Virus record (IMG/VR): IMGVR_UViG_3300032431_000001
Span: 124,400 to 188,399 of that record
From: a virus
Strand: one strand, 5' to 3'
Length of the DNA: 64,000 bases
Position numbers and translations under genes: made by a program
Notes under the pieces: generated by a model
Seen by the model: only the letters and a program-made list of their open reading frames with translations
The model's database searches: none
Told to the model about the DNA's origin: nothing
Shown here: positions 457 through 15,743 of the stretch, piece by piece
Numbering within the stretch: the first letter of the stretch is position 1
Layout of the letters: each line of letters starts with the position of its first letter

Positions 457-690
457 ATGGCTATCAGCAAAATCGTAAAGGTGATTATCAGAAGTCTTGA
501 CATCGAAGATATTCCTCTCAAAATTAAAGTCTGGTTCTGGAACTTTGATTTCCAGCGGGCGATCTATTGCAGACTCAGGGGTTGCAAACAGATTATAGAA
601 AGCTATTTGATGACACGATCGCCACGTCCAGCTTCCACTAAAGAAAAAGCCTCTGGTTCTGAAATTCCAACACGGACGGGTTCGCCGTAG
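457..690 (+). CDS. Doubtful small ORF (77 aa)
   Basis: A purine-rich stretch (GGGAGGGC) precedes the ATG, and the first 45 residues look protein-like (basic and hydrophobic, with several Trp and Phe). It runs opposite to all neighbours and its last 88 bases overlap the 3' end of the leftward 603 gene. The region 379-602 holds no other convincing gene. Listed only as a possibility. Confidence 0.22.
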   Translation: MAISKIVKVIIRSLDIEDIPLKIKVWFWNFDFQRAIYCRLRGCKQIIESYLMTRSPRPASTKEKASGSEIPTRTGSP

Positions 691-1295
691 AAGTCTTTAA
701 CAAGCGTATAGCTTGTCGAGTATCTCAATATCGCCCCATCGTCGGGTCGGATGAGATTGTATTCGTAGTTTGGCGCTTCTTCTTCGTCGTACAACAGGCG
801 GATTAATGCCCCGTATTCGTCGCTAAGGTTAGTCCCATCCAATTTCCAAGACTGGCGGTAGTCGTACCCAGTCCAGTTAGGTGCTTGGCGCAACCCTCTT
901 TTGGGTGGTACGTTACTGTGCTTGCACCGGTCGTTGATCATACTTACTATCGTCACAAGCTTACCTTCGCTCGCTTCGATCGCCATTGGTTCGAGCGATC
1001 GCGCCAGCCTCGGATTTGACCTTCCGATCTCGTTCAGTCTGACTTCCGAAAACAGAGAGAAGCTCGGCGGCGTCGCCAATATCTGGTACGGCTTACCTCC
1101 GCCACGACGGATTTCTGCTCTTTGTAGTCCACGTCGCAGACATTCTGAAATAATAAAGTTCCGCGCCGATTCAGAGCTGTTGATATGCGACGACACCCAC
1201 TCTGCATGAGAGCGTGGGTCTATAAACAGCGTTTCGCCGTCGTCATATACCTCGCAGTGTGGGATCAATGTGTCCTTTACATCATCTAAAAACAT
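603..1295 (-). CDS. Hypothetical protein (230 aa)
   Basis: Unrecognised soluble protein rich in charged residues, with no membrane segment. I chose the ATG at 1295 (protein begins MFLDDVKD) because GGAG lies seven bases upstream; an in-frame codon at 1316 lacks this. The start overlaps the end of the 1282 gene by 14 bases, which points to translational coupling. A segment near residues 83-105 (SEVRLNEIGRSNPRLARSLE) looks helical and could contact nucleic acid, but that is weak inference. Confidence 0.6.
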   Translation of the reverse strand: MFLDDVKDTLIPHCEVYDDGETLFIDPRSHAEWVSSHINSSESARNFIISECLRRGLQRAEIRRGGGKPYQILATPPSFSLFSEVRLNEIGRSNPRLARSLEPMAIEASEGKLVTIVSMINDRCKHSNVPPKRGLRQAPNWTGYDYRQSWKLDGTNLSDEYGALIRLLYDEEEAPNYEYNLIRPDDGAILRYSTSYTLVKDFYGEPVRVGISEPEAFSLVEAGRGDRVIK

Positions 1296-1749
1296 TCTTT
1301 TTCTCCGGTGAATCAAGATCGAATTGCAGATTGCGGCTTTGGTACAACTGTTCCAGGCTGTAATCTACACAGTCAGCCGCGACTAGGAATGATAAGTCAG
1401 AGTCTGTTGGGCGATCGCCCGAAACAAGGGCTTCGAGTCGTTCTACAGGGATTTTGATCTCCTGCGCCAGATCGCTTAGTTGGATATTTTTCAATATCTG
1501 GGCGATCGGTGGCGCCGGATTCAAAAACGGATCTTCTGTGATGTGTCGCCCGTGATGCTTAAAGTAATTGTTGGCGATGATCACCAACTCCTCTATGTAC
1601 TTTGGCATCGTCACGCGCGCCATTGTTGCCAGAACTTTAAGAGCCGTTTTAATTCGCTCTGGCATCCGCACTTTAATTTCTGATTGCTTTTCTGTTGGAT
1701 GTTTCACGAAGTTGTCCTTGTCCTTGTTCTTGTATCTGTAAGGCGGCAT
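1282..1749 (-). CDS. Ribbon-helix-helix-like DNA-binding protein (155 aa)
   Basis: Residues about 24-55 read SEIKVRMPERIKTALKVLA followed by a second helix (PKYIEELVIIANNYF). This is the strand-helix-helix pattern of RHH (Arc/CopG-like) repressors, which bind operators as dimers. A second helical segment (SDLAQEIKIPVERLEALVSG) resembles a small helix-turn-helix. It overlaps both neighbours, so the three genes are probably cotranscribed leftward. A regulator of this operon or of the facing promoter at 2.2 kb is an inference. Confidence 0.55.
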   Translation of the reverse strand: MPPYRYKNKDKDNFVKHPTEKQSEIKVRMPERIKTALKVLATMARVTMPKYIEELVIIANNYFKHHGRHITEDPFLNPAPPIAQILKNIQLSDLAQEIKIPVERLEALVSGDRPTDSDLSFLVAADCVDYSLEQLYQSRNLQFDLDSPEKKNVFR

Positions 1750-2053
1750 CCATTATATAGGCGTACCGACGAGCCATATCAGTCGCCTTTTCCCAGCAAG
1801 TACCCCAATTCCGAGCGGAGTCGAAGCTTATGCCCCAATGTTGAATTTCTCGGAGACACGCTTGTCGCCACGTTAGAGCGACGCGATCGCCAGTTCTAAA
1901 ATCCCGCCCCCACTGGGCTAGTCGATCATACTTATGGATTCCGTAGAGCTTTGGAACCCATCTGTCGAAGAAATCTTGCAGATCCATTCGAGATCCCGGC
2001 TCCAATATTAGACTCATCAACGGACTCCGATCTTGCTTTGGTGTGGTTAGCAT
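1673..2053 (-). CDS. Hypothetical protein (126 aa)
   Basis: Small protein rich in Trp and Arg (DLQDFFDRWVPKLYGIHKYD, then WGRDFRTGD and WRQACLREIQHWG). I do not know the family. Internal Met codons at residues 13 and 23 are alternative starts; none has a strong ribosome site. First gene of the leftward group, overlapping the RHH gene by 77 bases, so the true end or start of one of the two may be shorter. Confidence 0.5.
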   Translation of the reverse strand: MLTTPKQDRSPLMSLILEPGSRMDLQDFFDRWVPKLYGIHKYDRLAQWGRDFRTGDRVALTWRQACLREIQHWGISFDSARNWGTCWEKATDMARRYAYIMDAALQIQEQGQGQLRETSNRKAIRN

Positions 2054-2241: not shown

Positions 2242-2700
2242 ATGATCGATAAAATTGTTTCAGGAATGGTTTCCAATTTCCGCGCTCAGATGGGAGCCGT
2301 TTTTACCGAAGGCAAGGGTCTTGCGATAAATCGGATTTCGCAAGAAGACGCCGTTCGCTTGCAAGCTCAAGCCCAAGAGGCTAAATCGGCAGTCGATCCT
2401 ACAGTTGCCGGATTGACTGCTATGGCTGAGCGTATTCAGGCCGAGTCTACAATGACCGTCGCCGGCTTGAAATATATAGGCTCTGGCGCCGAAGCGTTTA
2501 CTCGGCAGGTTGAGGCGGTAGCCGAACTTTCGGATGTGATGGTGGAAACTTCTCCAAGAGTTCAAGCCGCACTGTCTCGATTGAATGAAAATGTACAGGC
2601 TTTGGGGTCAGAGTACGAAGGGATCATGTCCGGTACTACTGACACGCAACAGGCGATCGCCCCCGCGCAGTCACAAAAAATGCTATTTGCCGTCCGCTAG
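2242..2700 (+). CDS. Hypothetical helical protein (152 aa)
   Basis: Ala/Gln/Glu-rich protein that looks largely alpha-helical (for example RLQAQAQEAKSAVDPTVAG and PRVQAALSRLNENVQALGSE), so a coiled-coil or helical bundle is plausible. No catalytic motif and no membrane span are seen. It is the first gene behind the phased GGGT array and precedes two small membrane proteins. Role unknown; a structural or assembly part is possible. Confidence 0.55.
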   Translation: MIDKIVSGMVSNFRAQMGAVFTEGKGLAINRISQEDAVRLQAQAQEAKSAVDPTVAGLTAMAERIQAESTMTVAGLKYIGSGAEAFTRQVEAVAELSDVMVETSPRVQAALSRLNENVQALGSEYEGIMSGTTDTQQAIAPAQSQKMLFAVR

Positions 2701-2757
2701 GCTTAGCTTTCCTTTTTTCGGTTCGACCAGTAGTCAATTATCGAGGATTCAATTGCC

Positions 2758-3036
2758 ATGAAAATGAAATATATAGATTTTGCACCAGTCACAGCGTCCG
2801 CCGTAGTAATCGGCATTTTAGCTTCACTCGCAAAGTGCGCCGTGAATCCGATCGCCTTGTATGCCGCAAGCGGTATCGCGGTGATAATTATTTCTCAAGC
2901 TTTGGGATTGAAATACGTCGGAAGTGTCTCCGAGTTGACTGGGGTGCGTCCTGCTGCGCTCAACTTTCATTTTTGTGCAAATCTATTAGTCGCAGCATTT
3001 GTACTAGCCGTCACATATGGAGGCACTGGTAACTAA
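2758..3036 (+). CDS. Small membrane protein (92 aa)
   Basis: Hydrophobic segments at residues about 11-28 (VTASAVVIGILASLAKCA), 31-50 (IALYAASGIAVIIISQALGL) and 70-88 (LLVAAFVLAVTYGG) predict two or three transmembrane helices. There is no signal peptide cleavage site and no known domain. It overlaps or abuts the following membrane protein, suggesting that the two are made together. Confidence 0.6.
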   Translation: MKMKYIDFAPVTASAVVIGILASLAKCAVNPIALYAASGIAVIIISQALGLKYVGSVSELTGVRPAALNFHFCANLLVAAFVLAVTYGGTGN

Positions 3037-3037
3037 T

Positions 3038-3373
3038 ATGTACGACCAAAAAAAACACGTTCAAAAAGAATGGCAAGTGATCGCCTGTGGCGCTCTCACG
3101 ATAGCGACGATTGGTGTAAGTCTTTCAATCCCTGTAAAGCCTGGTGAAATTCCGATCGCCCGCTTACTTGCTTTCGCCACTTCAGGTGCATTCTTTGTCG
3201 CTGGTGCAGTCATAGAGAAAAGCAAAGAACCACTTGATCGCCAGAAAGCGGTAATCTCCGTAAAACAAAATAAACTATTCGTCAACTCTCAGGCGATCGA
3301 GACGGCGATTTTATTGGAAGAGCAGCGATGCGCGGGTGACAAAATTGTTGCAAAAACAGTTGGAGGTTCCTGA
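3038..3373 (+). CDS. Small membrane protein with cytoplasmic tail (111 aa)
   Basis: Two hydrophobic segments (IACGALTIATIGVSLSIPV and LLAFATSGAFFVAGAVI) are followed by a charged tail. The start may be the ATG at 3038 (MYDQKK) or an upstream one at 3017 that overlaps the previous gene. The TM-loop-TM-basic order resembles the N-terminal anchor of the ATPase at 11085, but sequence similarity is faint. Its stop codon overlaps the ATG of the next gene. Confidence 0.55.
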   Translation: MYDQKKHVQKEWQVIACGALTIATIGVSLSIPVKPGEIPIARLLAFATSGAFFVAGAVIEKSKEPLDRQKAVISVKQNKLFVNSQAIETAILLEEQRCAGDKIVAKTVGGS

Positions 3374-4314
3374 TGTCTAGGAAGCGAGAGCCAACCGCAG
3401 CGGAAGCTAAAAAAATTCTCAAGTTGCTTGAGAAAGAAGATCCGTTCAAAGAAAATGGAGGCGTCGTCTACTTGGACGGAACCGTAACTTCAGAGCATAA
3501 TCACGCGCTCTGTAGAAGCGCTATTTTGCTAGACCTCCAGTCTTACGATTGGAAAAAGGTTAAATTTTTGTGGATCTGCGCCGAACTTCCTGCGCCACCA
3601 GGATATGTTGACGATTGCTGTGGCGGTTGTGAAGACCGCGATACAGAGCGACTTAAACAGACAAAATCGGATTACGCCAAATTTGTTTCGACAGTTCCCC
3701 GAAAAGACTATGTTTCGACCGGACAAGCCGCGTGGTCAAAGCAGTTTGGAGTCCCGGTGGTAGTGTACCAGCGCGCTTACCCCAATCCCGCCAAAGGAGA
3801 AGAATCTGGGACTTGGGATATTTACGACCCGATCGCTTCCCAAAAAGAAAAGGCGATCGGCATCAATCTCGGTCAATTTTCAAAACTTGCGGGAATTGCC
3901 GCGGTTGAAGATTTTCAACACCTTGATACTGTTGCTCGGATCGCCATTGAAGAGCGCGATCGGCATGAATTTCAAATTCACCAAGCGTGGCTCAAATATA
4001 AATCAGCTTACGAGGCGGGATTGCATGACTGCGAAACTGCCTATCAACAGTTGGAGCGCGAAAATAAACTTCGAGATCGTCGGCTACAACAGGCGTTTTC
4101 TCAAATAAACCGATCGCCAGTCCCGCAGTCAGCCAGTTATCCAGGCGTCATTCCGCAAGTTATCCCAGATCAGCAGTTGATTCGTCAACCTGTGCGATCT
4201 GCTCATAACCAGCGACTGTCGCTGCCCCCAGCAAGTGCATCTATTTTAGAAAGTCCCATTTTTACCACGCCTCCCATTGAAGCTTTCAAATACGTGGAAG
4301 TTCTAGTGGTTTAG
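3373..4314 (+). CDS. Hypothetical protein with Cys-rich turn and coiled coil (313 aa)
   Basis: An N-terminal charged helix is followed by a globular part containing CCGGCEDRD at about residues 77-85, which could bind a metal. Residues about 190-245 (ARIAIEERDRHEFQIHQ and onward to RRLQQAFSQI) look like a coiled coil, and the C-terminus is Pro/Ser-rich. I do not recognise it. The ATG overlaps the previous stop codon, indicating translational coupling with the two membrane proteins. Confidence 0.55.
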   Translation: MSRKREPTAAEAKKILKLLEKEDPFKENGGVVYLDGTVTSEHNHALCRSAILLDLQSYDWKKVKFLWICAELPAPPGYVDDCCGGCEDRDTERLKQTKSDYAKFVSTVPRKDYVSTGQAAWSKQFGVPVVVYQRAYPNPAKGEESGTWDIYDPIASQKEKAIGINLGQFSKLAGIAAVEDFQHLDTVARIAIEERDRHEFQIHQAWLKYKSAYEAGLHDCETAYQQLERENKLRDRRLQQAFSQINRSPVPQSASYPGVIPQVIPDQQLIRQPVRSAHNQRLSLPPASASILESPIFTTPPIEAFKYVEVLVV

Positions 4315-5367: not shown

Positions 5368-6039
5368 TTGGATACCTACTCAACCCCAAGACAAGCAGCC
5401 GAACATTTGGGAGTTTGCCTGCATACGCTCAGGCGATGGGAGAAGGATGGCATGATCAAGGCTATTCGCACACCCGCAGGTCAACGACGATACTTAATCA
5501 ACTCTTATGCCGGATGCAATACAACCAACCTTAGAACTATCCTGTATGCCAGAGTCTCCAGCCGAGGTCAAAAAGCTGACCTTGACCGACAAATTGCAAA
5601 ATTATTGGAACTCTATCCATCAGCCGAACTCATTACCGACATTGCCTCCGGGCTCAATTTCAAAAGGAAAGGACTTAGATCCATTCTGGAAACCGTCCGT
5701 ACAGGCAATGTCGGCTCTGTTGTTGTTGCCCACAAAGACCGACTTGCCAGATTTGGCTTTGAACTCATTGAATGGCTCTGTCAGCTCGATGGAACAAAGC
5801 TCGTGGTTCTCAACCAAGACAATCTTTCTCCAGAACGAGAAATGGTCGAAGACATCCTTGCCATTATTCACGTCTTTTCCTGCCGACTCTACGGACTTAG
5901 AAAATACAAAACTCAAATCAAGGAAGATCCAGATTTATCCAGAGCCAGCACTGGTAAAGATTTGGAAGACGTGGATGGCAGCGACGCGATACTGCTACAA
6001 CCAGGCAATATCTCAACAAAAACAAGAACGTCTAAGTAA
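5368..6039 (+). CDS. tnpA: IS607-family serine recombinase TnpA (223 aa)
   Basis: Catalyses insertion and excision of the element with a serine nucleophile. Residues 6-45 form a MerR-like helix-turn-helix (RQAAEHLGVCLHTLRRWEKDG) with the wing RTPAGQRRY. The resolvase domain follows: YARVSSRGQKADLDRQ carries the active Ser, and DRLARFG carries the conserved Asp and Arg. The start appears to be TTG. Length is normal for the family. Its 3' half overlaps the long upstream extension of the tnpB frame. Confidence 0.88.
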   Translation: MDTYSTPRQAAEHLGVCLHTLRRWEKDGMIKAIRTPAGQRRYLINSYAGCNTTNLRTILYARVSSRGQKADLDRQIAKLLELYPSAELITDIASGLNFKRKGLRSILETVRTGNVGSVVVAHKDRLARFGFELIEWLCQLDGTKLVVLNQDNLSPEREMVEDILAIIHVFSCRLYGLRKYKTQIKEDPDLSRASTGKDLEDVDGSDAILLQPGNISTKTRTSK

Positions 6040-7045
6040 ACTCAAATTGCGTAACAAAATTATGCAATCAGACTTACCGAAGTGGGTAAAAGATACACCA
6101 TGCCATATCAGGCAAAATGCTATTTTCGATGCTCACCGAGCGTATTCCGCTAGTCGTGATGCCAAGTATCGAAGCATTCGCAATCCTCGCTCTACGGTGA
6201 AATTTAATGATGCCAACTTCCGAGATGGGATGTGGTTTAAATCAAAAGTTAAAGGGCTAAAATTCACCGCCTCCGAACCTGTTCCAGTATCTTGTAAATA
6301 TGGTACTCAGCTAGTTTTGCATCGTGGCAATTGGTTCGCTATTTTTCCTGAAGAATACGACTCAGAACCATCGGGTTCTAACTCGGCAATTGCCTTAGAT
6401 CCTGGTATTCGGACATTTCTGACGGGTTATGACTCGGAGAAAGTAATTGAGATTGGTAGTGGAGATATTGGAAGAATCACCCGCCTATGTCAATACCTTG
6501 ACGAGTTAATTGGAAAAATGACTAAAGTGTCTGCCAAGCAAAGAAGAGCGATGAAAAAGGCGGGGTCAAGAATTAGAAGCAAGATTCAAAATCTTGTTGA
6601 TGAGCTTCACAAAAAAGCTGCACATTTTCTAACCACAAATTATCAAGTTATCTTCCTGCCAACATTTGAAACATCTCAAATGGTCAAGCGCGCCAAGCGG
6701 AAGATCAATAAGAAGTCAGTACGTCAGATGTTGACATGGGCGCATTATCGCTTCAAGCAAATCATCAAGCATCAAGCTGATAAGAACGGCTCGCTTGTTG
6801 TTAATGTATCCGAAGCCTATACGTCTAAGACTTGTGGAAATTGCGGTCATATTCATCGAAAACTTGGTGGCTCTAAAGTGTTCAAATGTCCTAATTGCCA
6901 AACGGTAATTGAGCGAGATTTGAACGGCGCACGTAATATCTTGTTACGTGCTTTGTCGGATTCGACCTGTTCTGTCAGCATTGACGGGATTGCTATCGTT
7001 ACATCTCCAGCATTGCAGAGCTATGTTGAGAAATGTTCAGCGTAA
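5858..7045 (+). CDS. tnpB: TnpB RNA-guided nuclease of the IS607 element (about 395 aa)
   Basis: TnpB is a compact RuvC nuclease guided by an omega RNA made from the element's end. RuvC-I is IALDPGIRTFLTGYD, RuvC-II is IFLPTFETSQM, the zinc finger has two CxxC pairs (CGNCG and CPNC), and RuvC-III is DLNGARNI; all three acidic residues are present. The open frame reaches back to 5507 through tnpA, but the conserved protein begins near KLKSRKIQIYP. I place the start at an in-frame TTG at 5858; this is uncertain. Confidence 0.82.
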   Translation: MPLFTSFPADSTDLENTKLKSRKIQIYPEPALVKIWKTWMAATRYCYNQAISQQKQERLSKLKLRNKIMQSDLPKWVKDTPCHIRQNAIFDAHRAYSASRDAKYRSIRNPRSTVKFNDANFRDGMWFKSKVKGLKFTASEPVPVSCKYGTQLVLHRGNWFAIFPEEYDSEPSGSNSAIALDPGIRTFLTGYDSEKVIEIGSGDIGRITRLCQYLDELIGKMTKVSAKQRRAMKKAGSRIRSKIQNLVDELHKKAAHFLTTNYQVIFLPTFETSQMVKRAKRKINKKSVRQMLTWAHYRFKQIIKHQADKNGSLVVNVSEAYTSKTCGNCGHIHRKLGGSKVFKCPNCQTVIERDLNGARNILLRALSDSTCSVSIDGIAIVTSPALQSYVEKCSA

Positions 7046-7392: not shown

Positions 7393-7680
7393 TTACTGGG
7401 ACAAATCGTAGTAGAGTACCGTGTCTACGCCGTCTCTAACTGGGCAGTAGTCACGATCTTGCCACTTCAACGAAACCTCGCTAGGGTCAACGAGCCACCA
7501 ATACCCCTTGAAGAAATTTCCGTAGTCGTCGGCGACACTCGCAACCTTGAATTCTTGCCACCCTTGTTTCCGTAGGATCTTGGCGAATTCTACCTTCTCT
7601 AAGGCTTCTTCCGCGGCTAGTAGTCTTAGCGCTTGTTGTGCTAAGACTACTTCTAGTTTTTTTTTAAATACAAACTTCAT
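7393..7680 (-). CDS. Small hypothetical protein (95 aa)
   Basis: The start is taken at 7680 (MKFVFKKKLEVVL), which has AGGAAA at good spacing, rather than the longer open frame to 7755. The N-terminal half is a charged helix, and the C-terminal half is Trp/Tyr-rich (NFFKGYWWLVDPSEVSLKW). Unrecognised. The divergent spacer 7681-7847 separates it from the rightward 7848 gene. Confidence 0.5.
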   Translation of the reverse strand: MKFVFKKKLEVVLAQQALRLLAAEEALEKVEFAKILRKQGWQEFKVASVADDYGNFFKGYWWLVDPSEVSLKWQDRDYCPVRDGVDTVLYYDLSQ

Positions 7681-7847
7681 TTTTTTTCCTGGTGATGGAC
7701 TGTAATTAACATAACAGCACCTCACCACTTTGCAACCACATCTTAATTTCGTCACACAAAGCGCTATCCCTCGCGACGAATTAATAAGTCTTGCTTTAAC
7801 CTATGCGAAGCGTCTGATAATAGAAGCGAACAAAAAAATGGTGGCTC

Positions 7848-8060
7848 GTGGTGATAATAACTGTGCAAGGTACCCCGGAAGAATGCGAAGCGTTATGTGA
7901 TGTGTTAAAGGATGTACAGCTTTCGTCAGAAGTGCCGATCGCCATAAACGTCATTATACAGTCCGCGATAAAACCTTCGCTAATGCTTATACAAGGTGGT
8001 AAGACTGAATCGTCCGCTGGCGATCGCCGGAAAGTAGAATTACCTTTACTACCCCAATAA
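7848..8060 (+). CDS. Small hypothetical protein (70 aa)
   Basis: The GTG start is followed by MVIITVQGTPEECEALCDVL, a beta-strand plus helix as in small alpha/beta folds. It ends 15 bp before a terminator hairpin, so it may be a single-gene transcript. An ATG at 7838 in another frame leads to only a short ORF. Function unknown. Confidence 0.45.
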   Translation: MVIITVQGTPEECEALCDVLKDVQLSSEVPIAINVIIQSAIKPSLMLIQGGKTESSAGDRRKVELPLLPQ

Positions 8061-8074
8061 GATCGCCCTTACTT

Positions 8075-8108
8075 AAAAAGCTCAGACAACACAATGTCTG
8101 AGCTTTTT
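8075..8108 (+). terminator. Intrinsic terminator
   Basis: AAAAAGCTCAGACA and TGTCTGAGCTTTTT pair around a 6-base loop. It closes the 7848 gene and isolates the operon that begins at 8278. Confidence 0.8.
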
Positions 8109-8209
8109 GCTGTATATACGCATTTGCGTCATCGTAGCATTCATTTTGAAACTCGCAGTCTAAATATTTAGACAAAAACGTACAGCTCTCAAAAGTGCTG
8201 TGCAATATT

Positions 8210-8261
8210 GTTACACATAGGTCGTTACACACGATGTTTGAGTAACGACACCGTGTGTAAC
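8210..8261. promoter_or_regulatory. GTTACACA operator-like repeats
   Basis: GTTACACACG (8224-8233) and CGTGTGTAAC (8252-8261) are a perfect 10-bp inverted repeat with an 18-bp spacer. A further direct copy GTTACACA lies at 8210-8217, and TGTGTAAC recurs just inside the first gene near 8311. This cluster sits directly upstream of the 8278-13999 operon and probably binds its regulator. Confidence 0.5.
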
Positions 8262-8277
8262 ACTCTCCCGCAAAACA

Positions 8278-8808
8278 ATGCCAAATCAACGACTTCAGGA
8301 GGAATTTGAATGTGTAACGCCTAGCGCAAAACCAGTGCGTGTACAAATACTGAACGATAGAGAGTACGCTGCTTATCTCTATAACAAAGCCCGTCGATCG
8401 ATATTAGAGAATGCCCGCACTACAAATCGAACAGAGTTACTCATCACAAACAAACGAGGGGGTGTAATATGCCGAAAAACGTTATACAGCTACGACTTGA
8501 GACTACAAGGGCATCCCTTGATGGAAGATTATCGTAGGGACCCGCAAACCAAAGAACCTTTGTGGGATCGATCGCAGCCTTGGAACGAGCACCAAGTATA
8601 CTGCCTGAAAAAAGTGGCTGACTTTATGCGTATTCCTTCTATCTCTCGAAATACTGAAGGCAAAAAACGAAAGTATCGAAAGAAAGAGTTACCAAAGCGC
8701 AATCCAGAATACAAGGATCTCGACCGATATCTAGAAGCAAACTTTCACTTGTTCACTCACGAAAACTTTGTCAAGGAGCGTTTCAAATGGCCACATACAG
8801 CGAATTAG
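8278..8808 (+). CDS. Hypothetical basic protein (176 aa), first gene of motor operon
   Basis: Strongly basic protein with a Lys/Arg-rich patch at about residues 125-140 (EGKKRKYRKKELPKRNPEY), so nucleic-acid or membrane-surface binding is plausible. No known domain was recognised. A ribosome-like AGGAGG at about 8297-8302 lies inside the reading frame before an out-of-frame ATG that stops at once. The gene overlaps the next by 22 bp and starts the operon leading to the FtsK-like ATPase. Confidence 0.55.
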   Translation: MPNQRLQEEFECVTPSAKPVRVQILNDREYAAYLYNKARRSILENARTTNRTELLITNKRGGVICRKTLYSYDLRLQGHPLMEDYRRDPQTKEPLWDRSQPWNEHQVYCLKKVADFMRIPSISRNTEGKKRKYRKKELPKRNPEYKDLDRYLEANFHLFTHENFVKERFKWPHTAN

Positions 8809-9410
8809 CGGACTTGCTTGAAACCACTGTTGGAGAATTGTCCAACTTCGCAAGTCAGAACCTCAAAGACGTTAGTGGAAAGCCTTTTCCACCAGGAGTT
8901 AAAACCACGTTGACGGACGAGCAAGTCGATTTGTTGATGAGTGAATTTCCAAAATACAAAGATATGTCGCAAACTGAAGCCAAGCAACTGCCCGGCTCTA
9001 GTTCAATTCAAGAGGCCAAAACAGAAATCCCGACCACTAATCCCGATTCTCAAGGCAATCCACATTCGTTTCTCGATCAGGCGCGTCTAAACCTCAATCG
9101 CGCGATTGAAGCTAAGGATTTGCAAGCGATGGAAATCCTGCAAAACGAAATTAAGGAAATCCAAGAAGGTAGCACTCAAATCGGTTTCTTGAAGGCGGTC
9201 TTAGGCGCAGATGCCGAGGTAAAAGGTTTTTTATCCGCTAAGAATGCGATCGCCCAAGCAAATCAATCTAGGTCGGGGGAATCACTCAGAAAGCAAGCCG
9301 AAATGCTCGTGGGTGGTACGGATTTTTTGATGCCTTGGGAGAGTCCGGTACCCCTGGACTCGATCGCCCAAGACACATTGGATCAGCTCAAGAAATTATC
9401 CGAGAGTTAG
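8787..9410 (+). CDS. Hypothetical helical protein (207 aa)
   Basis: AAGGAG precedes the ATG. The N-terminus (MATYSELADLLETTVGELSNF) reads like a short helix-turn-helix, followed by a low-complexity polar linker and then helices around residues 95-140 (LDQARLNLNRAIEAKDLQAM). Family unknown. Overlap with the previous gene supports translational coupling within the operon. Confidence 0.5.
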   Translation: MATYSELADLLETTVGELSNFASQNLKDVSGKPFPPGVKTTLTDEQVDLLMSEFPKYKDMSQTEAKQLPGSSSIQEAKTEIPTTNPDSQGNPHSFLDQARLNLNRAIEAKDLQAMEILQNEIKEIQEGSTQIGFLKAVLGADAEVKGFLSAKNAIAQANQSRSGESLRKQAEMLVGGTDFLMPWESPVPLDSIAQDTLDQLKKLSES

Positions 9411-9490
9411 AGCAAATTCGCGAAGAGAAGCAGTCAGTGACATTGGTTCTCTTCGTTAGTCAAAATCAAAGCTTATGGAGTAAGGTTCTA

Positions 9491-9616
9491 ATGGCAAAAT
9501 GGTTGATTGATTGGGGTAAAGGAGTGGCATCGAAACTAAGAGATACACTTGCATCTGCGGGTAATCCGATCGCCAGCGAAGACTATGCTGCTGCTGCTAT
9601 CCAGATGATGAGCTAG
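9491..9616 (+). CDS. Very small protein (41 aa)
   Basis: The frame is open from 9335, but only the ATG at 9491 has a ribosome site (GGAG about 10 bases upstream), giving MAKWLIDWGKGVASKLRDTL and onward. This looks like an amphipathic helix able to lie on a membrane. The longer version would overlap the preceding gene by 76 bases. Function unknown. Confidence 0.4.
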   Translation: MAKWLIDWGKGVASKLRDTLASAGNPIASEDYAAAAIQMMS

Positions 9617-9634
9617 TAAAAAAAGGAGATAAAA

Positions 9635-9886
9635 ATGACACAATCAAACGCAATTCCGAATTCTAAGTTTAACGACGATTCGATCGCCCGACCAATAGTA
9701 GATGCTCCCGATATCCGAATCAACTGGGAACCGGAAGGTGACGCTGAATTCTTAAGGTCACACGACTTGTTAAAAAAAGAACCTCAATTCAAGGGATCAG
9801 CGACATTTAACCAGAATCCTGACTGTGGTGTGTCTGGTACTTTATTGCGGGCGATCGGTAATCAATTAAAAAAATGGAGGAACTAA
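9635..9886 (+). CDS. Small hypothetical protein (83 aa)
   Basis: A strong AAAAGGAGATAAAA ribosome site precedes the ATG. The protein is polar with no membrane span, and the middle is acidic (DIRINWEPEGDAEFLRSHD). Unrecognised. It ends three bases before the next ATG, within the operon. Confidence 0.5.
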   Translation: MTQSNAIPNSKFNDDSIARPIVDAPDIRINWEPEGDAEFLRSHDLLKKEPQFKGSATFNQNPDCGVSGTLLRAIGNQLKKWRN

Positions 9887-9889
9887 ACA

Positions 9890-10702
9890 ATGGCACAGCA
9901 ACAAGGTGGTTTAATTCTTTCGTCATTAGCCGATCGCCAAATCTTTGCTTCTGGCGCCGCACTCCTGGCAAACGATTACAAGATTACGAATCTGGAGACT
10001 CCATCAACCTGGACGCTTGACGATTGGATGGAGTTGGGCGAGCGGGCATCCCAAATGGAATGGTTAGCCAGCAACATAGATGCGATTCGCGATCGCCTTA
10101 TGAAGGTGATCAAAGGTCAAGTGACCTGGGAAAAGCTGAAGATGGAGTTGGTAAAAGAGGGCTTCAAAGGCGCGAGCGATATATCAAAGAGCACCGTAGA
10201 CGCTTTGATTTCTGAATCTAGCTTTTTGCAAAAAGTTGCTCAAGGCGAAAACAAATTAAATTCCAAGCGGAAGCAGTTTGGCAAAGAAACGGAGGCGATT
10301 CAAACGCACGAAGAAGCGCTATGCGGGTTCGCTCTTGCGAGCCTCAAAGCCAAACACGATCAAATAATTGAAGAAAAACAAGCCGAAGATCCTAATTTTG
10401 CGGTCGCTCTCGCAGCTTGGCAGCAAGAGCAAAATAGAGATTACGCATTTGCGACACAAGCGCTCAGTAGTGGTTACGGCACGCGGTCTCACCCTAAGTT
10501 TCAAGGGATGCAGACTAATCGGGCGATCGGTGGTAGTTCGACAACGCCCTATAACTCGTCGTTTGCGGGTTCAAGGGCTCGCCAGCGCCCTGTAGACGAG
10601 CTGAATATCAATCTGAAAGGTAATGTCGCCGGCGCGGTCAACGGTTTTGCGGGACGTGTCGGCGCCGGCGCAAGAAAAGTAGTTAGTTTTTTTAGAGGTT
10701 AG
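9890..10702 (+). CDS. Hypothetical helical protein (270 aa)
   Basis: GGAGG lies at good spacing. Residues 1-175 are helical and charged (RASQMEWLASNIDAIRDRLM, then a Lys/Glu-rich coiled-coil stretch to EEKQAEDPNF). The last 70 residues are Gly/Ser-rich and end in a basic hydrophobic tip (ARKVVSFFRG). Unrecognised. Its position before a membrane protein and a membrane-anchored ATPase suggests an adaptor or scaffold for that machine, by context only. Confidence 0.5.
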   Translation: MAQQQGGLILSSLADRQIFASGAALLANDYKITNLETPSTWTLDDWMELGERASQMEWLASNIDAIRDRLMKVIKGQVTWEKLKMELVKEGFKGASDISKSTVDALISESSFLQKVAQGENKLNSKRKQFGKETEAIQTHEEALCGFALASLKAKHDQIIEEKQAEDPNFAVALAAWQQEQNRDYAFATQALSSGYGTRSHPKFQGMQTNRAIGGSSTTPYNSSFAGSRARQRPVDELNINLKGNVAGAVNGFAGRVGAGARKVVSFFRG

Positions 10703-10704
10703 TT

Positions 10705-11085
10705 ATGTACTCACAGCAAAATCTGCCAACACAGACTGAGGAAACTCCTTTTTCTGGAAGCTATCTCAGGATTAAAAGCCTTGACGCATGGGCGTTTCGA
10801 GGTATCACCTTCTCCATCGGGCTTATCGCAACAAACGTCATCCGACTGTTTCCCGCCTATTACTGGCTCTATGTATTGGTTTCTATTTTGGGTATTTTAG
10901 CCCTTTTGTTATTTTCACCTGCTGACATCAAGGCTGTATCGCTTTGGAGATCGGGTGCAATCGCGCTTCTAGGCGGGTTAATCCTGCCTTGGTGGGAAAT
11001 CCTAAGCACACTCCCAATTTGGGTGTGGATAGCGATTCCTATGGGGTTGGTTGCAATATTAACGGCGATCGGAGGGGCTGTCTGA
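10705..11085 (+). CDS. Polytopic membrane protein (126 aa)
   Basis: After a polar start (about 25 residues) come four hydrophobic segments: FRGITFSIGLIATNVIRLF, YWLYVLVSILGILALLLF, LWRSGAIALLGGLILPWW and VWIAIPMGLVAILTAIG. It lacks a known domain. Its TGA overlaps the ATG of the ATPase gene (TGATG), so the two products are probably made in balance and could form one membrane complex. Confidence 0.6.
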   Translation: MYSQQNLPTQTEETPFSGSYLRIKSLDAWAFRGITFSIGLIATNVIRLFPAYYWLYVLVSILGILALLLFSPADIKAVSLWRSGAIALLGGLILPWWEILSTLPIWVWIAIPMGLVAILTAIGGAV

Positions 11086-12926
11086 TGAAACCCGCTGCTC
11101 AACTACTTCTTGGCGCTGTTTTTAGCTTATTGGCGATCGCGCCGGTACCGTTTCAAAAATGGGCGTTGCCGAGAATTGCCTCTGGTGGATTTGCGCTTGT
11201 TTGCTTTAGTCAAGCGAAAAAGAAGCTGGACAATGATCTCTCTTTACAGCGTCAAGTTGATGTTCACGAGTTTGATGAGCTAGCCCAGCAAAAGCAGATT
11301 GTACAAAGCTTACAGGCGATCGAGATTCAAGCGACTCAAGAGCGCGAACTCATCCGCACTCAATTCCAGAACGAGCTAGAAAAAGCTCGAATGCAGGAAC
11401 ATTTCGTGGTTGCGATGGAGCATGAGCGTCCAGGCTATTTGGAGTATCAAGAGGCTCAGCGCATTGCTAATTTACAAGCTCAAGGGTACTCTGCTGGTGT
11501 TCAAGATGGCGGACGGGCGATCGTATCTGCGGACGGATCTGAAGTAATCACAGGAGCCGTCGAAGCAACAGACAGAGGACAGCGACTTCTTCAAAGACTT
11601 CGCAAATCTGATATGTCGATCCTCATTGTTGGCTCAACCGGTGCTGGGAAATCACACACTTTGAGCGCATATCTTGAGTTTCTTTATCAAGATTCTCCTG
11701 ATGCAGATGTTTGGGTTATTTCTCGAAAAAATGACTCGTTTTGTGGATTGCGTGAAGCAGGTAGAGTTGTTCGATTCAATTCGCTAGATCCGGTTGACGC
11801 TTTAGAAAAGCTTCGCGAGTTTCACGCGATTTTCCAAGAAAGAACTGAAGTTTTGGAAGAGGATAGATGCAAGCTTTCGACAGTGCGTTTGATTCTTGAG
11901 GATTGGAGTTCGATCTGTCTCATCCTTAAAACCAACAAAACTATCTGGAATGAAGTCAAGATCATTCTTAGCGACATAGTTACAGTTGGTCGTGACCTGA
12001 ATATCTGTTTAGTAATATTGGCTCAAAGCGCAATTCTCGAATCTTTAGGATTGGTTGGTGATGCCAATTTGAGAACCTGTTTAGCAATCGTTGCTCAGGG
12101 ATTGGAGTCTATCAATAACAAGGGAGAAGAGCAGGGGGATTACAATTTAATTCAGTTGATCCTTCAAAACTCGTATATTATCCCTTCTAGTGAAGATAGA
12201 GAAAGCCTTTCTAGTGAATTAGTGAAATTAATTCCTGAATCTAGGCAGATTAGGCAGCCAGTCTTTTTGTGTACGAGCGGAAAACCTTTTGTAGGATTTT
12301 TGCCTAAAATCACAAAAATCACCGTACCTATAGCTCAACCAAAACAAGGAGTCGGAAATAATTCAAACACATCAAGTACGTCTAAAAAGCAGGAGGTAAA
12401 CTCCGCTCCGATCGCCAGCATTGAAACTCAAAAAGCGCAGCTTGATGCGACATTCAAAAAGGCATACAACCCATTAGATCACCTTTTTCAAGAGGCTAGT
12501 CAAGAGGAGTTGGATGAATTGATCAGAGGCTGGCGAGAACTGGCAGATACTTCGGCGTCACGCGTATCTGATACTTTGATACCCAAAGAAGTATCAGATA
12601 CCGAGAATCAGGGGTATCAAACCCCAAAACCCTTGCTAGGTAAGGAGTCTCAAAGTATCTGGACTGAGGAAGATTTTGCCAAACACCTTCCAAAAAAGGA
12701 TGAAGGGCTGCTTTTTGAGGAACTTGTTAAGTATCAAGACGAGTCTCAAGATGTATCTAAAATTATTAAAATCGGTTGGGGATTCACCGGTAAATATCAA
12801 ACGGGACGCGCCTGTTTTGTCTATCTTATTACCAAATATGGAGGTGAGGCACAGAAAAAACTTTACGCAGATTACATTAACCAATACCTTGGGGTTGACT
12901 CTCAAGATGGCGGAGTTGAAAGATAA
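11085..12926 (+). CDS. Membrane-anchored FtsK/HerA/VirD4-like P-loop ATPase (613 aa)
   Basis: The ATG at 11085 has GGAGGGG upstream. Residues about 5-45 contain two hydrophobic segments (LLLGAVFSLLAIAPVPF and IASGGFALVCF), then a coiled coil to about 130. The motor core has Walker A GSTGAGKS at 183-190 and a Walker B-like LILEDW with Glu272-Asp273, followed by VGRDLNICLVILAQS, as in FtsK/VirD4/HerA DNA pumps. The C-terminus (LFEELVKYQDESQDVSKIIK and onward) looks like a winged helix. It would translocate DNA or a protein-DNA complex at the membrane. The exact family and substrate are unknown. Confidence 0.7.
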   Translation: MKPAAQLLLGAVFSLLAIAPVPFQKWALPRIASGGFALVCFSQAKKKLDNDLSLQRQVDVHEFDELAQQKQIVQSLQAIEIQATQERELIRTQFQNELEKARMQEHFVVAMEHERPGYLEYQEAQRIANLQAQGYSAGVQDGGRAIVSADGSEVITGAVEATDRGQRLLQRLRKSDMSILIVGSTGAGKSHTLSAYLEFLYQDSPDADVWVISRKNDSFCGLREAGRVVRFNSLDPVDALEKLREFHAIFQERTEVLEEDRCKLSTVRLILEDWSSICLILKTNKTIWNEVKIILSDIVTVGRDLNICLVILAQSAILESLGLVGDANLRTCLAIVAQGLESINNKGEEQGDYNLIQLILQNSYIIPSSEDRESLSSELVKLIPESRQIRQPVFLCTSGKPFVGFLPKITKITVPIAQPKQGVGNNSNTSSTSKKQEVNSAPIASIETQKAQLDATFKKAYNPLDHLFQEASQEELDELIRGWRELADTSASRVSDTLIPKEVSDTENQGYQTPKPLLGKESQSIWTEEDFAKHLPKKDEGLLFEELVKYQDESQDVSKIIKIGWGFTGKYQTGRACFVYLITKYGGEAQKKLYADYINQYLGVDSQDGGVER

Positions 12927-12958
12927 AACAAACGCATCTATCACATCAGGTAAAAAAC

Positions 12959-13249
12959 GTGCAAATTGTTCAGTTCATTCTTTTTGGTATTCTTGGATTG
13001 TTCGCAGTATTCCTTCTAACATCAGGGGCGATTACTTATCTCTTTTACTCGCTGAGCAGTCCTACTGAAATCCCGCCTTTGGTAATTCCGAGTTGGCAAG
13101 AACTACCCAGTAGTTCTAGGAAAGTATTCGTTGCAGGAGTAGCTATCCTTGCCGCTATCTGGGTGTTAAGAGGTGAGGAGGTAGGTAAAAAAGAAGATAC
13201 AAATCCCGAAAAAAAGGGGCGTCGGCGCCAGAATCGTAAAGACGATTAA
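12959..13249 (+). CDS. Small membrane protein (96 aa)
   Basis: GTG start. Two hydrophobic segments (VQFILFGILGLFAVFLLTSGA and VFVAGVAILAAIWVLRG) flank a Pro-rich loop, and the C-terminus is highly basic (KKGRRRQNRKDD). It lies between the ATPase and its degenerate partner, so it is probably another membrane part of the same assembly. Confidence 0.55.
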   Translation: MQIVQFILFGILGLFAVFLLTSGAITYLFYSLSSPTEIPPLVIPSWQELPSSSRKVFVAGVAILAAIWVLRGEEVGKKEDTNPEKKGRRRQNRKDD

Positions 13250-13282
13250 ATTCACAAAAATCCACAAAAACAGGAGAATCTC

Positions 13283-13999
13283 ATGTATTTAGAAAAAGCT
13301 GAAACCCCCACAGAACACTGCGAAACTTTGAACGAATCGGTACAGGCGATCGGCACACCCGACGCTTTTAAAGTGAACGCAATTGGCACACTAATTCAAA
13401 AATTAAGTCCAGAACCTTCAGAGATAATCGCGATTACTCCAAATAATAGTCAAGGTTCTTTTTGGCGTGGGATGGGTATTGCGTGTGTTCAAGATTTAAA
13501 GGAAGTCGGTCAAGTTCTCGGTGAATTGGTCGCCGAGCTACACGATCGCCAAAAACTGTCGAACTGTCACGGAACAGTCAAGCATCGGATTATTGTCGTC
13601 ATTGAAATCGACAGTTTACATTCAGCGTTAGCACAACGGGCGATCGAATTAAATCATCAATATTCGGAAAGAGTGCTTGATGGTGCAGTCTCAATGTTGC
13701 GAGAACATGGATCTAAAGTCGGAATGTTCGTCGTCGAGTCCGTAGCGAAGCCGAGAGTCGAAATCGGTTGTCGGATGTACTCTGGAGTCGAGGCGATCAA
13801 ATATATACTCGACGAGACGACCAATGTGAGTAATGATGTTTACCAACGAGTGACTCAACGGCTCGAAGGGCAGACACATCCATGCTGCTTAGTTGTAGGT
13901 GAAGCTGAAATTGTTTACCCGATCGAAGGCGTGACAGATCAGCTTGTACCATTAAAGCTTCAGTTTGTTCCTGAAATTGAGCGGGCGATCGATTTATAA
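13283..13999 (+). CDS. Degenerate FtsK/HerA-like protein lacking Walker A (238 aa)
   Basis: AGGAG precedes the ATG. The fold order resembles the ATPase core of the 11085 product. IIAITPNNSQGSFWRGMG matches the strand after the P-loop (VWVISRKNDSFCGLREAG there). RIIVVIEIDSLHS at residues 102-114 matches Walker B, with Glu108 and Asp110. HGSKVGMFVVESVAKPR matches the following strand. No GxxxxGK[ST] is present, so ATP hydrolysis is unlikely. I infer a pseudo-ATPase subunit or regulator of the neighbouring motor. Confidence 0.5.
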   Translation: MYLEKAETPTEHCETLNESVQAIGTPDAFKVNAIGTLIQKLSPEPSEIIAITPNNSQGSFWRGMGIACVQDLKEVGQVLGELVAELHDRQKLSNCHGTVKHRIIVVIEIDSLHSALAQRAIELNHQYSERVLDGAVSMLREHGSKVGMFVVESVAKPRVEIGCRMYSGVEAIKYILDETTNVSNDVYQRVTQRLEGQTHPCCLVVGEAEIVYPIEGVTDQLVPLKLQFVPEIERAIDL

Positions 14000-14006
14000 T
14001 ACGTTC

Positions 14007-14053
14007 GCCAGTAAAAAGCAGTCTCGTCAATCGCGGGGCTGCTTTTTGCTGGC
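14007..14053 (+). terminator. Operon-end terminator
   Basis: GCCAGTAAAAAGCAG pairs with CTGCTTTTTGCTGGC around a GC-rich loop. It follows the 13999 stop by 7 bp and closes the motor operon. Confidence 0.7.
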
Positions 14054-14066
14054 ACAATAGCCGCCA

Positions 14067-14095
14067 TTGTGTCTAGTAGTAGATAGTGGTATAAT
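14067..14095 (+). promoter_or_regulatory. Sigma70-type promoter
   Basis: TTGTGT (14067-14072) and a perfect TATAAT (14090-14095) are separated by 17 bp. Transcription should begin near 14102. No credible ORF follows before the terminator at 14385-14425, so it appears to drive a non-coding RNA. Confidence 0.7.
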
Positions 14096-14101
14096 AGGAT
14101 A

Positions 14102-14428
14102 CAAGAAAGAAAAGTAACGCTACACAGATTCAACAACGCGAATTAATCGAGGATACTCGACGCAGCCATTGAAGTACGCGATCACACTCTTAATTTAACG
14201 AAAACGTTTAATTATATTTAATTATCACAAAAAACAAATCACTATTTTGCGGATCAGCGATCCGTAACCAGTCGAGGAAGTTGCCACAATTAATATCGCG
14301 CGAGACGCTGTATTGATTCAGACTGACAGATGAGAATTCTTGCAGTCGAAATTTGCTCCCATCAGAGATGGAACTAGAGCGAACAAAAAGCCCGCCAAAC
14401 CCAAATAGGGTTTGGCGGGCTTTTTGTT
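14102..14428 (+). ncRNA. Candidate structured non-coding RNA (about 330 nt)
   Basis: Bounded by the TATAAT promoter and a strong intrinsic terminator, with no translated ORF. Inside are a perfect small hairpin CGGATC-AGC-GATCCG (14250-14264) and an AT-rich tract. The part from 14197 onward recurs after the tnpB element at 15744, with the hairpin and terminator conserved and a 25-30-base deletion elsewhere. Conservation of hairpin and terminator suggests an RNA. Function unknown; a leader RNA for tnpB is the main alternative. Confidence 0.5.
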
Positions 14429-14445: not shown

Positions 14446-15743
14446 ATCCGCACAATGTAAAGATTTATCATATTTATACACACAAAACTGTATAAACATG
14501 ATAAGCTGGTCACATGGTAACACTAGAGTACAAGTTGAAAGGCAAAGCGCAGCAATATCAGATCATCGACGACATGATCCGAACTGCTCAGTTTGTCCGA
14601 AACAAAGCTCTTAGATACTGGATCGACAATCAAGGAGTTAAGCTCGTTGACTTATACAAACAATGCGCCATCATGGCAAAAGAGTTTGAATGGGCCGGAA
14701 AACTTAACTCAATGGCGCGTCAAGCTTCGGCTGAACGTGCCATTTTTGCTGTTCAACGTTTCTTCGCTAATTGTAAAGCGAAAAAACCTGGAAAGAAAGG
14801 ATACCCGCAATTCAAAAAGCACACTCGCTCAGTAGAATATAAAACATCAGGATGGAAGCTTTCTGCTGATAAAAGATGTTTGACATTTACGGACGGGTTT
14901 GCAGCGGGTACTTTCAAACTGGTCGGCAGTCGGGATTTACACTTCTACGCTCCTAGCGAAATTAAACGAGTTAGGGTTGTGCGTCGGGCTGATGGCTACT
15001 ATGTTCAGTTTTGCATCAACGTAGAACGAACGGAGGAAGTCAGCCCAACAGGTAAAGCTATTGGAATAGATGTCGGATTAAACCATTTCTATACCGATAG
15101 TAACGGTGAAACAATACCTAACCCTCGCTATTTACGAAAAAGCGAAAAAGCCCTAAAGCGAGCGCAGAAACGAGTTTCCCGAAAAAAGAAAGGCTCCAGT
15201 AATCGCAAAAAAGCGATTAACAGATTAGGAAGAAAACACCTCAAAGTCAGTAGGCAGCGCAAAGACTTCGCCATAAAGACGGCGTTGTGCGTAGTAAAAT
15301 CTAACGATTTTGTAGCCTACGAAGATTTGCAGGTGAAGAACATGGTGAAGAATCATAAGCTTGCCAAATCGATTAGCGATGCCGCTTGGCGTCAGTTTGC
15401 TCAGTGGTTGCAATATTTTGGCAAAGTGTACGGTAAAACAGTAATTGCTGTTGCTCCTCAGTACACATCTCAAGATTGCTCAGTCTGTGGAAACAGAGTC
15501 AAGAAGTCGCTGTCGGTTAGGACACACATTTGTGGATGCGGTGCGGTATTAGACCGCGACCACAATGCTGCGCTGAATATTTTGGCGAAGGGACTGAAAC
15601 AGGCAGGGGTTATTTTAAATACGGTGGGGCACACCGAAATTAACGCTTGGGGACAGAACGATCTCTACTCATTGGTGGTGACATCAAAGAGCAAATCGAC
15701 TGATTGATCCAAGAATCCCTACGCTTTTAGGCTGGGGAGTGTC
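14446..15743 (+). mobile_element. IS200/IS605-type tnpB-only element
   Basis: The limits follow from the flanking repeat: the left copy ends in TTAATTT at 14445 and the right copy restarts at 15744. The right end (AGAATCCC, stem, GCTGGGGAGTGTC) matches the conserved right ends of the other TnpB elements here. There is no tnpA, so it depends on a transposase in trans. Confidence 0.75.
14514..15707 (+). CDS. tnpB: TnpB RNA-guided nuclease (397 aa)
   Basis: Complete RuvC set: AIGIDVGLNHFYTDS (Asp), FVAYEDLQVKNM (Glu), zinc finger CSVCG...CGCG, then DRDHNAALNIL (Asp). Normal length for IS1341-type TnpB, so it is likely active. The omega RNA should come from the 3' end of this gene plus the element's right end. 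The bases just past that end would be its guide, and they are the first bases of the flanking repeat. Confidence 0.9.
   Translation: MVTLEYKLKGKAQQYQIIDDMIRTAQFVRNKALRYWIDNQGVKLVDLYKQCAIMAKEFEWAGKLNSMARQASAERAIFAVQRFFANCKAKKPGKKGYPQFKKHTRSVEYKTSGWKLSADKRCLTFTDGFAAGTFKLVGSRDLHFYAPSEIKRVRVVRRADGYYVQFCINVERTEEVSPTGKAIGIDVGLNHFYTDSNGETIPNPRYLRKSEKALKRAQKRVSRKKKGSSNRKKAINRLGRKHLKVSRQRKDFAIKTALCVVKSNDFVAYEDLQVKNMVKNHKLAKSISDAAWRQFAQWLQYFGKVYGKTVIAVAPQYTSQDCSVCGNRVKKSLSVRTHICGCGAVLDRDHNAALNILAKGLKQAGVILNTVGHTEINAWGQNDLYSLVVTSKSKSTD

What the first reader, a model, noticed from the sequence alone, without database searches (positions are those of the whole stretch)
8278..13999. Uncharacterised membrane-anchored ATPase operon inside a prophage-like region
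Nine tightly packed rightward genes (several overlapping) combine a basic protein, helical proteins, a four-helix membrane protein, an FtsK/HerA/VirD4-like ATPase with two N-terminal membrane segments and a C-terminal winged-helix-like end, another small membrane protein with a basic tail, and a P-loop-less ATPase relative. It has its own operator and terminator. None of the non-ATPase parts match families I know. This looks like a complete membrane DNA-handling machine: transfer, packaging, exclusion or segregation. The paired small membrane proteins at 2758-3373 may belong to the same system. This is my best candidate for an undescribed system.
Basis: partly seen in the sequence, partly recalled or inferred. 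Interest (0 to 1): 0.78.

Follow-up and report, generated by a model that had tools for sequence, protein, structure and literature searches.

The report
Membrane DNA-motor operon of cyanobacterial plasmids, phages
A set of genes in a large cyanobacterial phage, also found beside the replication and partition genes of many cyanobacterial plasmids, encodes a membrane-bound DNA motor whose engine is swapped between elements together with a matching short DNA repeat array, which points to an undescribed machine for moving or keeping plasmid and phage DNA.

Summary
The nine-gene operon is real. It lies in a 188-kb phage record with its own terminase and tail genes. A 200-kb relative (L130) keeps the operon in order with nearly the same gene gaps. 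The core (helical protein g5, membrane protein g6, FtsK-HerA-type ATPase g7) is conserved in 38 plasmids, about 50 genome loci and nine further phage records, all from filamentous cyanobacteria where the host is named. In plasmids it follows ParM (43 of 53 loci) and often faces the CyRepA replication gene.

Two new facts bear on function. (1) The anchor (g5+g6+ATPase N-half) and the motor are separate modules with sharp DNA breakpoints; motors have been exchanged in plasmids and phages. (2) In most plasmid loci a short repeat array follows the ATPase stop codon, and its sequence follows the motor, not the anchor (ACGGCA x8 or AGACAC x9). The phages carry TGATAC clusters inside g7.

It is not a packaging motor (separate terminases) nor the conjugation coupling protein (a conjugative carrier has its own). 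Best reading: a sequence-specific membrane DNA translocase working like TraB-clt or FtsK-KOPS, serving segregation or cell-to-cell spread. Nothing was tested at the bench.

The parts
603..1316 (-). 237-aa protein of unknown function, divergent neighbour of the operon in relatives
   Evidence: homologues in L016 (1e-67) and L130 (69 % identity) next to the operon; no PHROG
1282..1749 (-). 155-aa protein with a ribbon-helix-helix-like stretch (read from sequence)
   Evidence: homologues in L016 and L130; no Pfam match
1673..2053 (-). 126-aa protein, divergent neighbour
   Evidence: homologues in L016 and L130
2242..2700 (+). 152-aa helical protein of the associated block
   Evidence: homologues before g1 in L130 and downstream of the ATPase in L018, L019, L021
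2758..3036 (+). small membrane protein m1
   Evidence: 58.6 % identity in L130, same place; hydropathy
3017..3373 (+). small membrane protein m2
   Evidence: 54 % identity in L130; hydropathy
3373..4314 (+). 313-aa conserved protein of unknown function
   Evidence: 60 % identity in L130; 1e-31 in L018, L021 near the ATPase
8224..8261 (.). operator-like inverted repeat GTTACACACGATGT / ACACCGTGTGTAAC
   Evidence: 93 % complementary 14-nt arms; the adjoining TTACACATAGGTC stretch conserved in L130
8278..8808 (+). g1, 176-aa basic protein; family also found as first cassette gene in plasmids that lack ParM
   Evidence: L016 1.3e-9, L130 50 %; plasmid-only profile finds L016 g1 at 1.6e-8
8787..9410 (+). 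g2, 207-aa acidic helical protein
   Evidence: L130 31 %, 1e-26
9335..9616 (+). g3, small protein, true start uncertain
   Evidence: 59-aa homologue in L016
9635..9886 (+). g4, 83-aa protein
   Evidence: position conserved in L130 (99 aa)
9890..10702 (+). g5 (CC), 270-aa all-helical protein with short basic/aromatic C-terminal tail
   Evidence: phrog_31528 8.6e-15; L016+window profile ranks the positional plasmid genes first; model; tail
10705..11085 (+). g6 (TM), 126-aa membrane protein, 1-nt overlap with g7
   Evidence: phrog_36329 3.8e-17; L130 55 %
11085..12926 (+). g7, membrane-anchored FtsK-HerA-superfamily ATPase (N-part about 1-155, motor about 165-410, C-tail about 411-613)
   Evidence: profile, model and Foldseek, module comparison
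12569..12619 (.). cluster of four TGATAC/GTATCA hexamers inside g7, between motor and C-tail; candidate recognition site
   Evidence: conserved in place in L016 and L130, in several reading frames; 10-13 of 20,000 synonymous recodings reach it
12959..13249 (+). g8, 96-aa membrane protein with basic tail
   Evidence: L130 40.6 %, 1e-19; absent from L016
13283..13999 (+). g9, 238-aa protein, no detectable relation to the ATPase
   Evidence: L130 36 %, 6e-44; absent from L016; hhalign against the ATPase negative
14007..14053 (+). hairpin after the last gene
   Evidence: 20-nt arms, 85 % complementary

Best explanation
The operon encodes a membrane-anchored, sequence-specific DNA translocase. g5 (helical protein), g6 (membrane protein) and the N-half of g7 form one co-inherited anchor at the inner membrane; the g7 motor is an FtsK-HerA-type ring ATPase; the C-terminal part of g7 recognises a short repeat array next to or inside its own gene and so chooses the replicon that carries it. 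DNA-binding proteins (g1, g2 in the phage; ParM and small partners in plasmids) act at the operator/partition end. The motor moves its own plasmid or extrachromosomal prophage DNA at the membrane so that daughter cells, or neighbouring cells of the filament, receive a copy. Shown by sequence: conservation, module swaps, co-variation of array with motor or C-tail, independence from terminase and from the conjugative coupling protein. Inferred: ring assembly, translocation, array binding, DNA binding by g1/g2, and segregation or spread as the purpose.
For: Anchor as a unit: on 23 non-redundant trios, similarity of ATPase N-part with g5 and g6 r = 0.99 and 0.98, motor with them only 0.44-0.45; CC~motor given N = -0.06. 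DNA breakpoints: L006/L112 share 7539-12314 and 13569-14340 but not the motor; L006/L008 share 7539-10229 and 12363-13571 but not the anchor. Same swap in phages: window against L130 N 35 %, motor 22 %, C-tail 49 %; L130 motor 52 % identical to plasmid L111 motor. Array: ACGGCA x5-8 after motor 1 with anchors A, B and C; AGACAC x5-9 after motor 2 with anchors A and C; in the nine loci checked no other place has 4 or more copies in 200 nt; random stretches give 5 or more copies of a best hexamer in 1.6 %. The swapped block ends where the array ends. Phage TGATAC clusters sit in g7 of three phages with two motor types and one C-tail family. Motor fold: EccC/EssC, FtsK, TcpA first; alternative motor passes the Pfam HerA cut-off. 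Position: ParM upstream in 43 of 53 non-viral loci, CyRepA opposite in 26 of 39. No tyrosine integrase or ParA found in the eight phage records, and one relative, pLBA, is a phage-plasmid.
Against: No experiment. DNA binding by the C-tail is inferred from co-variation; no Pfam HTH match there and its model is poor. Loci are redundant (many Nostoc), so the number of independent swaps is small, perhaps four to six. Some loci (L002, L116, L018) show no array after the stop. Absence of integrase or ParA may reflect incomplete records. One carrier has a second ParM and a ParA elsewhere, so the cassette is not always the only partition system. The array could instead be a replication or incompatibility site that moves with the motor by linkage. 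The Walker B region is unusual (hhhxDW), so catalysis is assumed.
Confidence: 0.5

Rival explanations
1. Pure partition or membrane tether: the repeat array is a centromere, the ATPase holds or spaces plasmid copies at the membrane together with ParM (or g1/g2) and does not pump DNA or pass it between cells.
For: Position after ParM in 43 of 53 loci and opposite CyRepA; array co-varies with the protein; phages without integrase.
Against: A full FtsK-HerA-type motor with alternative HerA-type replacement suggests translocation; one carrier plasmid has a second ParM and a ParA.
Confidence: 0.22
2. TraB-Spd-like transfer only: the system passes double-stranded plasmid or prophage DNA across septa to neighbouring cells of the filament, or to another filament (the narrow, transfer-specific form of the best explanation).
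For: Same plan as Streptomyces TraB (single FtsK-like membrane ATPase, repeats recognised by the C-terminus, varied small membrane partners; PMC5365140 and PMC4170104); all named carriers are filamentous; Synechococcus, Picosynechococcus and Synechocystis give at least 32 CyRepA plasmids and no cassette.
Against: Host bias is confounded by relatedness and sampling; no sequence relation to TraB or Spd was found beyond the superfamily; the neighbours are replication and partition genes.
Confidence: 0.22
3. Coupling protein for relaxase-based mobilisation or conjugation.
For: PGAP names some members 'type IV secretory system conjugative DNA transfer'; relaxase is more frequent among carriers (26 of 38 against 87 of 204, Fisher p = 5e-4).
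Against: pNOS3756_2 has its own type IV DNA-binding coupling protein and T4SS besides the cassette; 12 of 38 carriers lack a relaxase; phages carry it; no relaxase lies in the cassette.
Confidence: 0.07
4. Phage genome packaging motor.
For: FtsK-HerA fold is shared with packaging ATPases of other viruses.
Against: Separate terminase in all eight cassette virus records searched and in L130; the same cassette on plasmids.
Confidence: 0.02
5. Entry exclusion, superinfection immunity or anti-phage defence by a membrane complex.
For: Small membrane proteins plus ATPase in a phage; varied anchors would suit specificity; weak PADLOC mad8 match, 2e-6 over about 80 residues.
Against: No effector domain found; the PADLOC match is limited to the P-loop region; the array linked to the motor is not explained.
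Confidence: 0.1

Closest known systems
Streptomyces TraB with clt repeats and Spd proteins (PMC4170104, PMC5365140)
   Same: One FtsK-like membrane ATPase, short repeats recognised by the C-terminus, diverse small membrane partners, plasmids of filamentous bacteria
   Different: Partners unrelated by the family searches done; motor swaps as a block with its array; linked to ParM and CyRepA; present in phages; transfer not shown
FtsK/SpoIIIE with KOPS (own knowledge; fold match PDB 6t8b)
   Same: Motor fold and membrane anchoring
   Different: Low sequence similarity, below the Pfam cut-off; element-specific arrays instead of polar genomic motifs
TcpA, coupling protein of pCW3 (PDB 6o1w)
   Same: One of the best structural matches (TM-score to target 0.46)
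   Different: No T4SS in the cassette; a carrier has its own coupling protein
TdtA of Thermus transjugation (PMC5365140)
   Same: HerA-like DNA-pushing ATPase on a mobile element
   Different: TdtA has no detected DNA-binding domain and lies with NurA and a restriction enzyme; neither is here
ParMRC partition (type II)
   Same: ParM with small neighbours forms the first half of most plasmid cassettes
   Different: Phage version lacks ParM; a membrane ATPase module is not part of ParMRC

Membership tests
[quoted passage not shown]
   Model of residues 160-410 at pLDDT about 90 matches EccC/EssC, FtsK, TcpA
[quoted passage not shown]
   Window motor below the cut-offs (DUF87 20 of 23.2 bits); alternative motors L110 and L111 above it (24.3 and 38 bits)
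[quoted passage not shown]
   Type 1 motors carry hhhxDW with invariant D273 and W274; the catalytic residue is unresolved, so membership of this sub-motif fails while the fold test is met
TraB-clt | Cognate repeat array next to the ATPase gene that follows the protein | tested here: met
   ACGGCA or AGACAC arrays follow the motor across anchors A and C; TGATAC in the phages
TraB-clt | C-terminal helix-turn-helix that binds the repeats | tested here: inconclusive
   No Pfam HTH match, weak model; binding not testable here
TraB-clt | Transfers double-stranded plasmid DNA between cells | not testable with these tools
   needs an experiment
VirD4-type coupling protein | Serves a relaxase and T4SS of the same element | tested here: not met
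   Separate coupling protein in pNOS3756_2; 12 of 38 carriers without relaxase
Phage terminase large subunit | Packaging ATPase of the phage | tested here: not met
   Independent terminases
ParMRC partition | ParM present | tested here: not met
   No ParM ORF in G000 with a profile of the plasmid ParMs; present in 43 of 53 non-viral loci. The StbA_N search was uninformative

The most novel reading that the evidence does not exclude
A modular dsDNA-spreading machine of filamentous cyanobacteria: plasmids and phage-plasmids carry a septum-located pump with interchangeable motors, each with its own address label in the DNA, that passes the element from cell to cell along the filament; a convergent counterpart of Streptomyces TraB-Spd, used also by phages to colonise a filament without lysis.
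Probability: 0.22. Interest if true: 0.93.

Novelty: new variant of a known kind. Interest (0 to 1): 0.8.

Why it matters
The operon family is widespread beside the replication genes of cyanobacterial plasmids, yet public annotation calls its members hypothetical or labels them as conjugation proteins, and no description was found in the open papers searched. The natural exchange of motor plus matching DNA array gives ready-made matched and mismatched pairs to test how a translocase recognises its own replicon. It would explain part of how low-copy plasmids and phage-plasmids persist in multicellular cyanobacteria, and makes the question whether DNA moves between the cells of a filament testable.

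Tried and rejected
g9 as an ATPase relative: hhalign alone and with the L130 homologue gave 0.1-0.6 % probability. Direct tblastn of g5 and g7 in INPHARED phages: none; a distant ATPase (L018) finds an orphan homologue in Nodularia phages without g5/g6-like neighbours. Single-sequence scans of viral and genome contigs found nothing; the alignment was needed. C-terminal winged helix by Pfam: no. Profile against PDB sequences: only P-loop-level matches. First comparison of g1 with plasmid g1 was circular because the plasmid profile had recruited L016; repeated with a clean profile. Amphipathic C-tail of g5: significant only in some members; the basic and aromatic character is general. Long iteron arrays upstream of the operon: none, only small element-specific inverted or direct repeats. 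Literature: no description found, open-licence papers only.

Full report
What it lies in. The window is the last 64 kb of a 188,399-b IMG/VR virus record. The record has a terminase of the GpA type, a terminase small subunit, endolysin, ribonucleotide reductase, a DNA polymerase III beta subunit and many TnpB elements; the 995-aa protein at 19008-21995 reads like a tail sheath (own reading). It is a phage. No tyrosine integrase, ParA or CyRepA was found in it, with the caveat that the record may be incomplete.

Check of the operon. Nine rightward ORFs are present; the ATPase begins at ATG 11085, one nucleotide overlapping g6. A second 189-kb phage (L016) keeps g1-g3 and g5-g7 but has no g8 or g9. 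A third, 200-kb phage (L130), found through the gene at 3373, keeps g1, g2, g4-g9 in order with nearly the same spacing, preceded by the homologues of 2242-4314 and by the divergent genes of 603-2053. In the window this block is interrupted by an IS607/TnpB-type insertion at about 5368-7045 (own reading). The operator region is also conserved in L130.

Wider family. tblastn of the ATPase finds 27 plasmids, and a plasmid homologue finds 38, all of filamentous cyanobacteria; profile-based scans add 50 genome loci and eight phage records. Fourteen of 386 sampled cyanobacterial genomes had a match, all of 5.5 Mb or more. In plasmids the cassette reads: CyRepA replication gene and a small DNA-binding ORF on one strand; divergently, ParM, small ORFs, a helical protein, a membrane protein, the ATPase. 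Of 53 non-viral loci with enough upstream sequence, 43 have ParM, six have instead a g1-type gene, four neither; 26 of 39 have CyRepA opposite. A profile of just the window and L016 g5 ranks the positional helical genes of plasmids on top among 9,505 ORFs, and g6 behaves alike, so g5 and g6 are the counterparts of the plasmid genes. The membrane and ATPase genes overlap by 1 or 4 nt in 66 of 72 loci, redundant ones included.

Nature of the ATPase. Sequence searches give only weak P-loop matches. A model from 27 homologues is confident for residues 160-410 and matches EccC/EssC, FtsK and TcpA. Type 1 motors share KNDSFCG after the second strand and an unusual Walker B, hhhxDW. Some plasmids carry a second motor type in the same place which passes the Pfam HerA cut-off. 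The N- and C-terminal parts are modelled poorly.

Modules. In 23 non-redundant g5-g6-ATPase trios the similarity of the ATPase N-part follows g5 and g6 almost perfectly (r 0.98-0.99), while the motor does not (0.44-0.45). At DNA level the exchange has clean edges: L006 and L112 are alike from ParM to nt 12314 and again from 13569, with unrelated motors between; L006 and L008 are alike up to 10229 and from 12363 to 13571, with unrelated anchors between. The same has happened in phages: the window and L130 share N-part (35 %) and C-tail (49 %) but not the motor (22 %), and the L130 motor is 52 % identical to a plasmid type 2 motor; the window and L016 share the motor (85 %).

The repeat array. 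Starting a few nucleotides after the ATPase stop codon, most plasmid loci carry a short repeat: two inverted copies, a T-rich spacer, then several direct copies. Its sequence depends on the motor: ACGGCA x5-8 with type 1 motors of Nostoc, whatever the anchor (A: L006, L010; B: L008, L011, L029; C: L012, L049); AGACAC x5-9 with type 2 motors on anchors A (L110, L112) and C (L100, L104); TCCCGA, ATCCAA and GGAACA in other lineages. In random 220-nt stretches of the same loci the best hexamer reaches 5 or more copies in 34 of 2,190, and in the nine loci checked each array is the only place with 4 or more copies in 200 nt. The DNA block that swaps with the motor ends where the array ends. In the three large phages a cluster of four TGATAC hexamers lies inside g7 between motor and C-tail (window 12569-12619); the copies fall in different reading frames, and only 10-13 of 20,000 synonymous recodings reach that number in each phage. 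Because these phages have two different motors but one C-tail family, the site follows the C-tail there. The simplest reading is that the C-terminal part reads the array.

What it is not. Terminases are encoded separately in all eight cassette virus records searched and in L130. The conjugative plasmid pNOS3756_2 has a MobF relaxase, a T4SS and its own coupling protein besides the cassette, and a third of carrier plasmids have no relaxase, although relaxases are more frequent among carriers than among CyRepA plasmids at large. pLBA of Leptolyngbya carries the cassette with terminase, portal, head protein and ParA: a phage-plasmid.

Mechanism. Shown: conserved operon, anchor and motor modules, cognate array. 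Inferred: a ring translocase held at the membrane by g5/g6, loaded at its own array, moving its own replicon. This is how TraB works at clt in Streptomyces (PMC4170104, PMC5365140) and how FtsK works at KOPS (own knowledge). Whether the purpose is segregation or passage between cells of the filament cannot be decided from sequence; every named host is filamentous, and at least 32 CyRepA plasmids of Synechococcus, Picosynechococcus and Synechocystis lack it, but this is confounded by relatedness.

Noticed in passing
G000 (whole record), e.g. window 5368-7045 and 14514-15707; L079 218-1597 and 4225-5604: Many TnpB/IS605-IS607 type elements in one phage genome (at least 11 proteins match OrfB_IS605), including two identical 460-aa copies, plus a group II intron reverse transcriptase.
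   Followed up: no
window 3373-4314: 313-aa protein of unknown function, 60 % identical in L130 and present near the ATPase in L018, L019, L021; no Pfam or PHROG match.
   Followed up: partly
L132 9826-11964 (Nodularia phage kac65v161 gp140): Cultured Nodularia phages carry an orphan distant homologue of the ATPase (profile 2.6e-32) without g5- or g6-like neighbours.
   Followed up: partly
L010, L112, L007, L110 and other plasmids of single Nostoc strains: Co-resident plasmids of one strain mostly carry different anchor/motor combinations, as if combinations mattered for compatibility; exceptions exist (two type 2 in N6, two type 1 in MS1).
   Followed up: no
G010 (75,163 b virus contig): The ATPase gene runs across the contig ends (matches at 74497-75162 and 2-184), suggesting a circular genome.
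   Followed up: no
L021 / G007 (83,911 b virus contig): A virus record with both a terminase match and a CyRepA (DUF3854) replication protein besides the cassette, a likely phage-plasmid.
   Followed up: no
G000 within 1-100000: The phage encodes a DndB-like DNA-sulfur-modification protein, KilA-N and Bro-N domains and DNA methylases.
   Followed up: no
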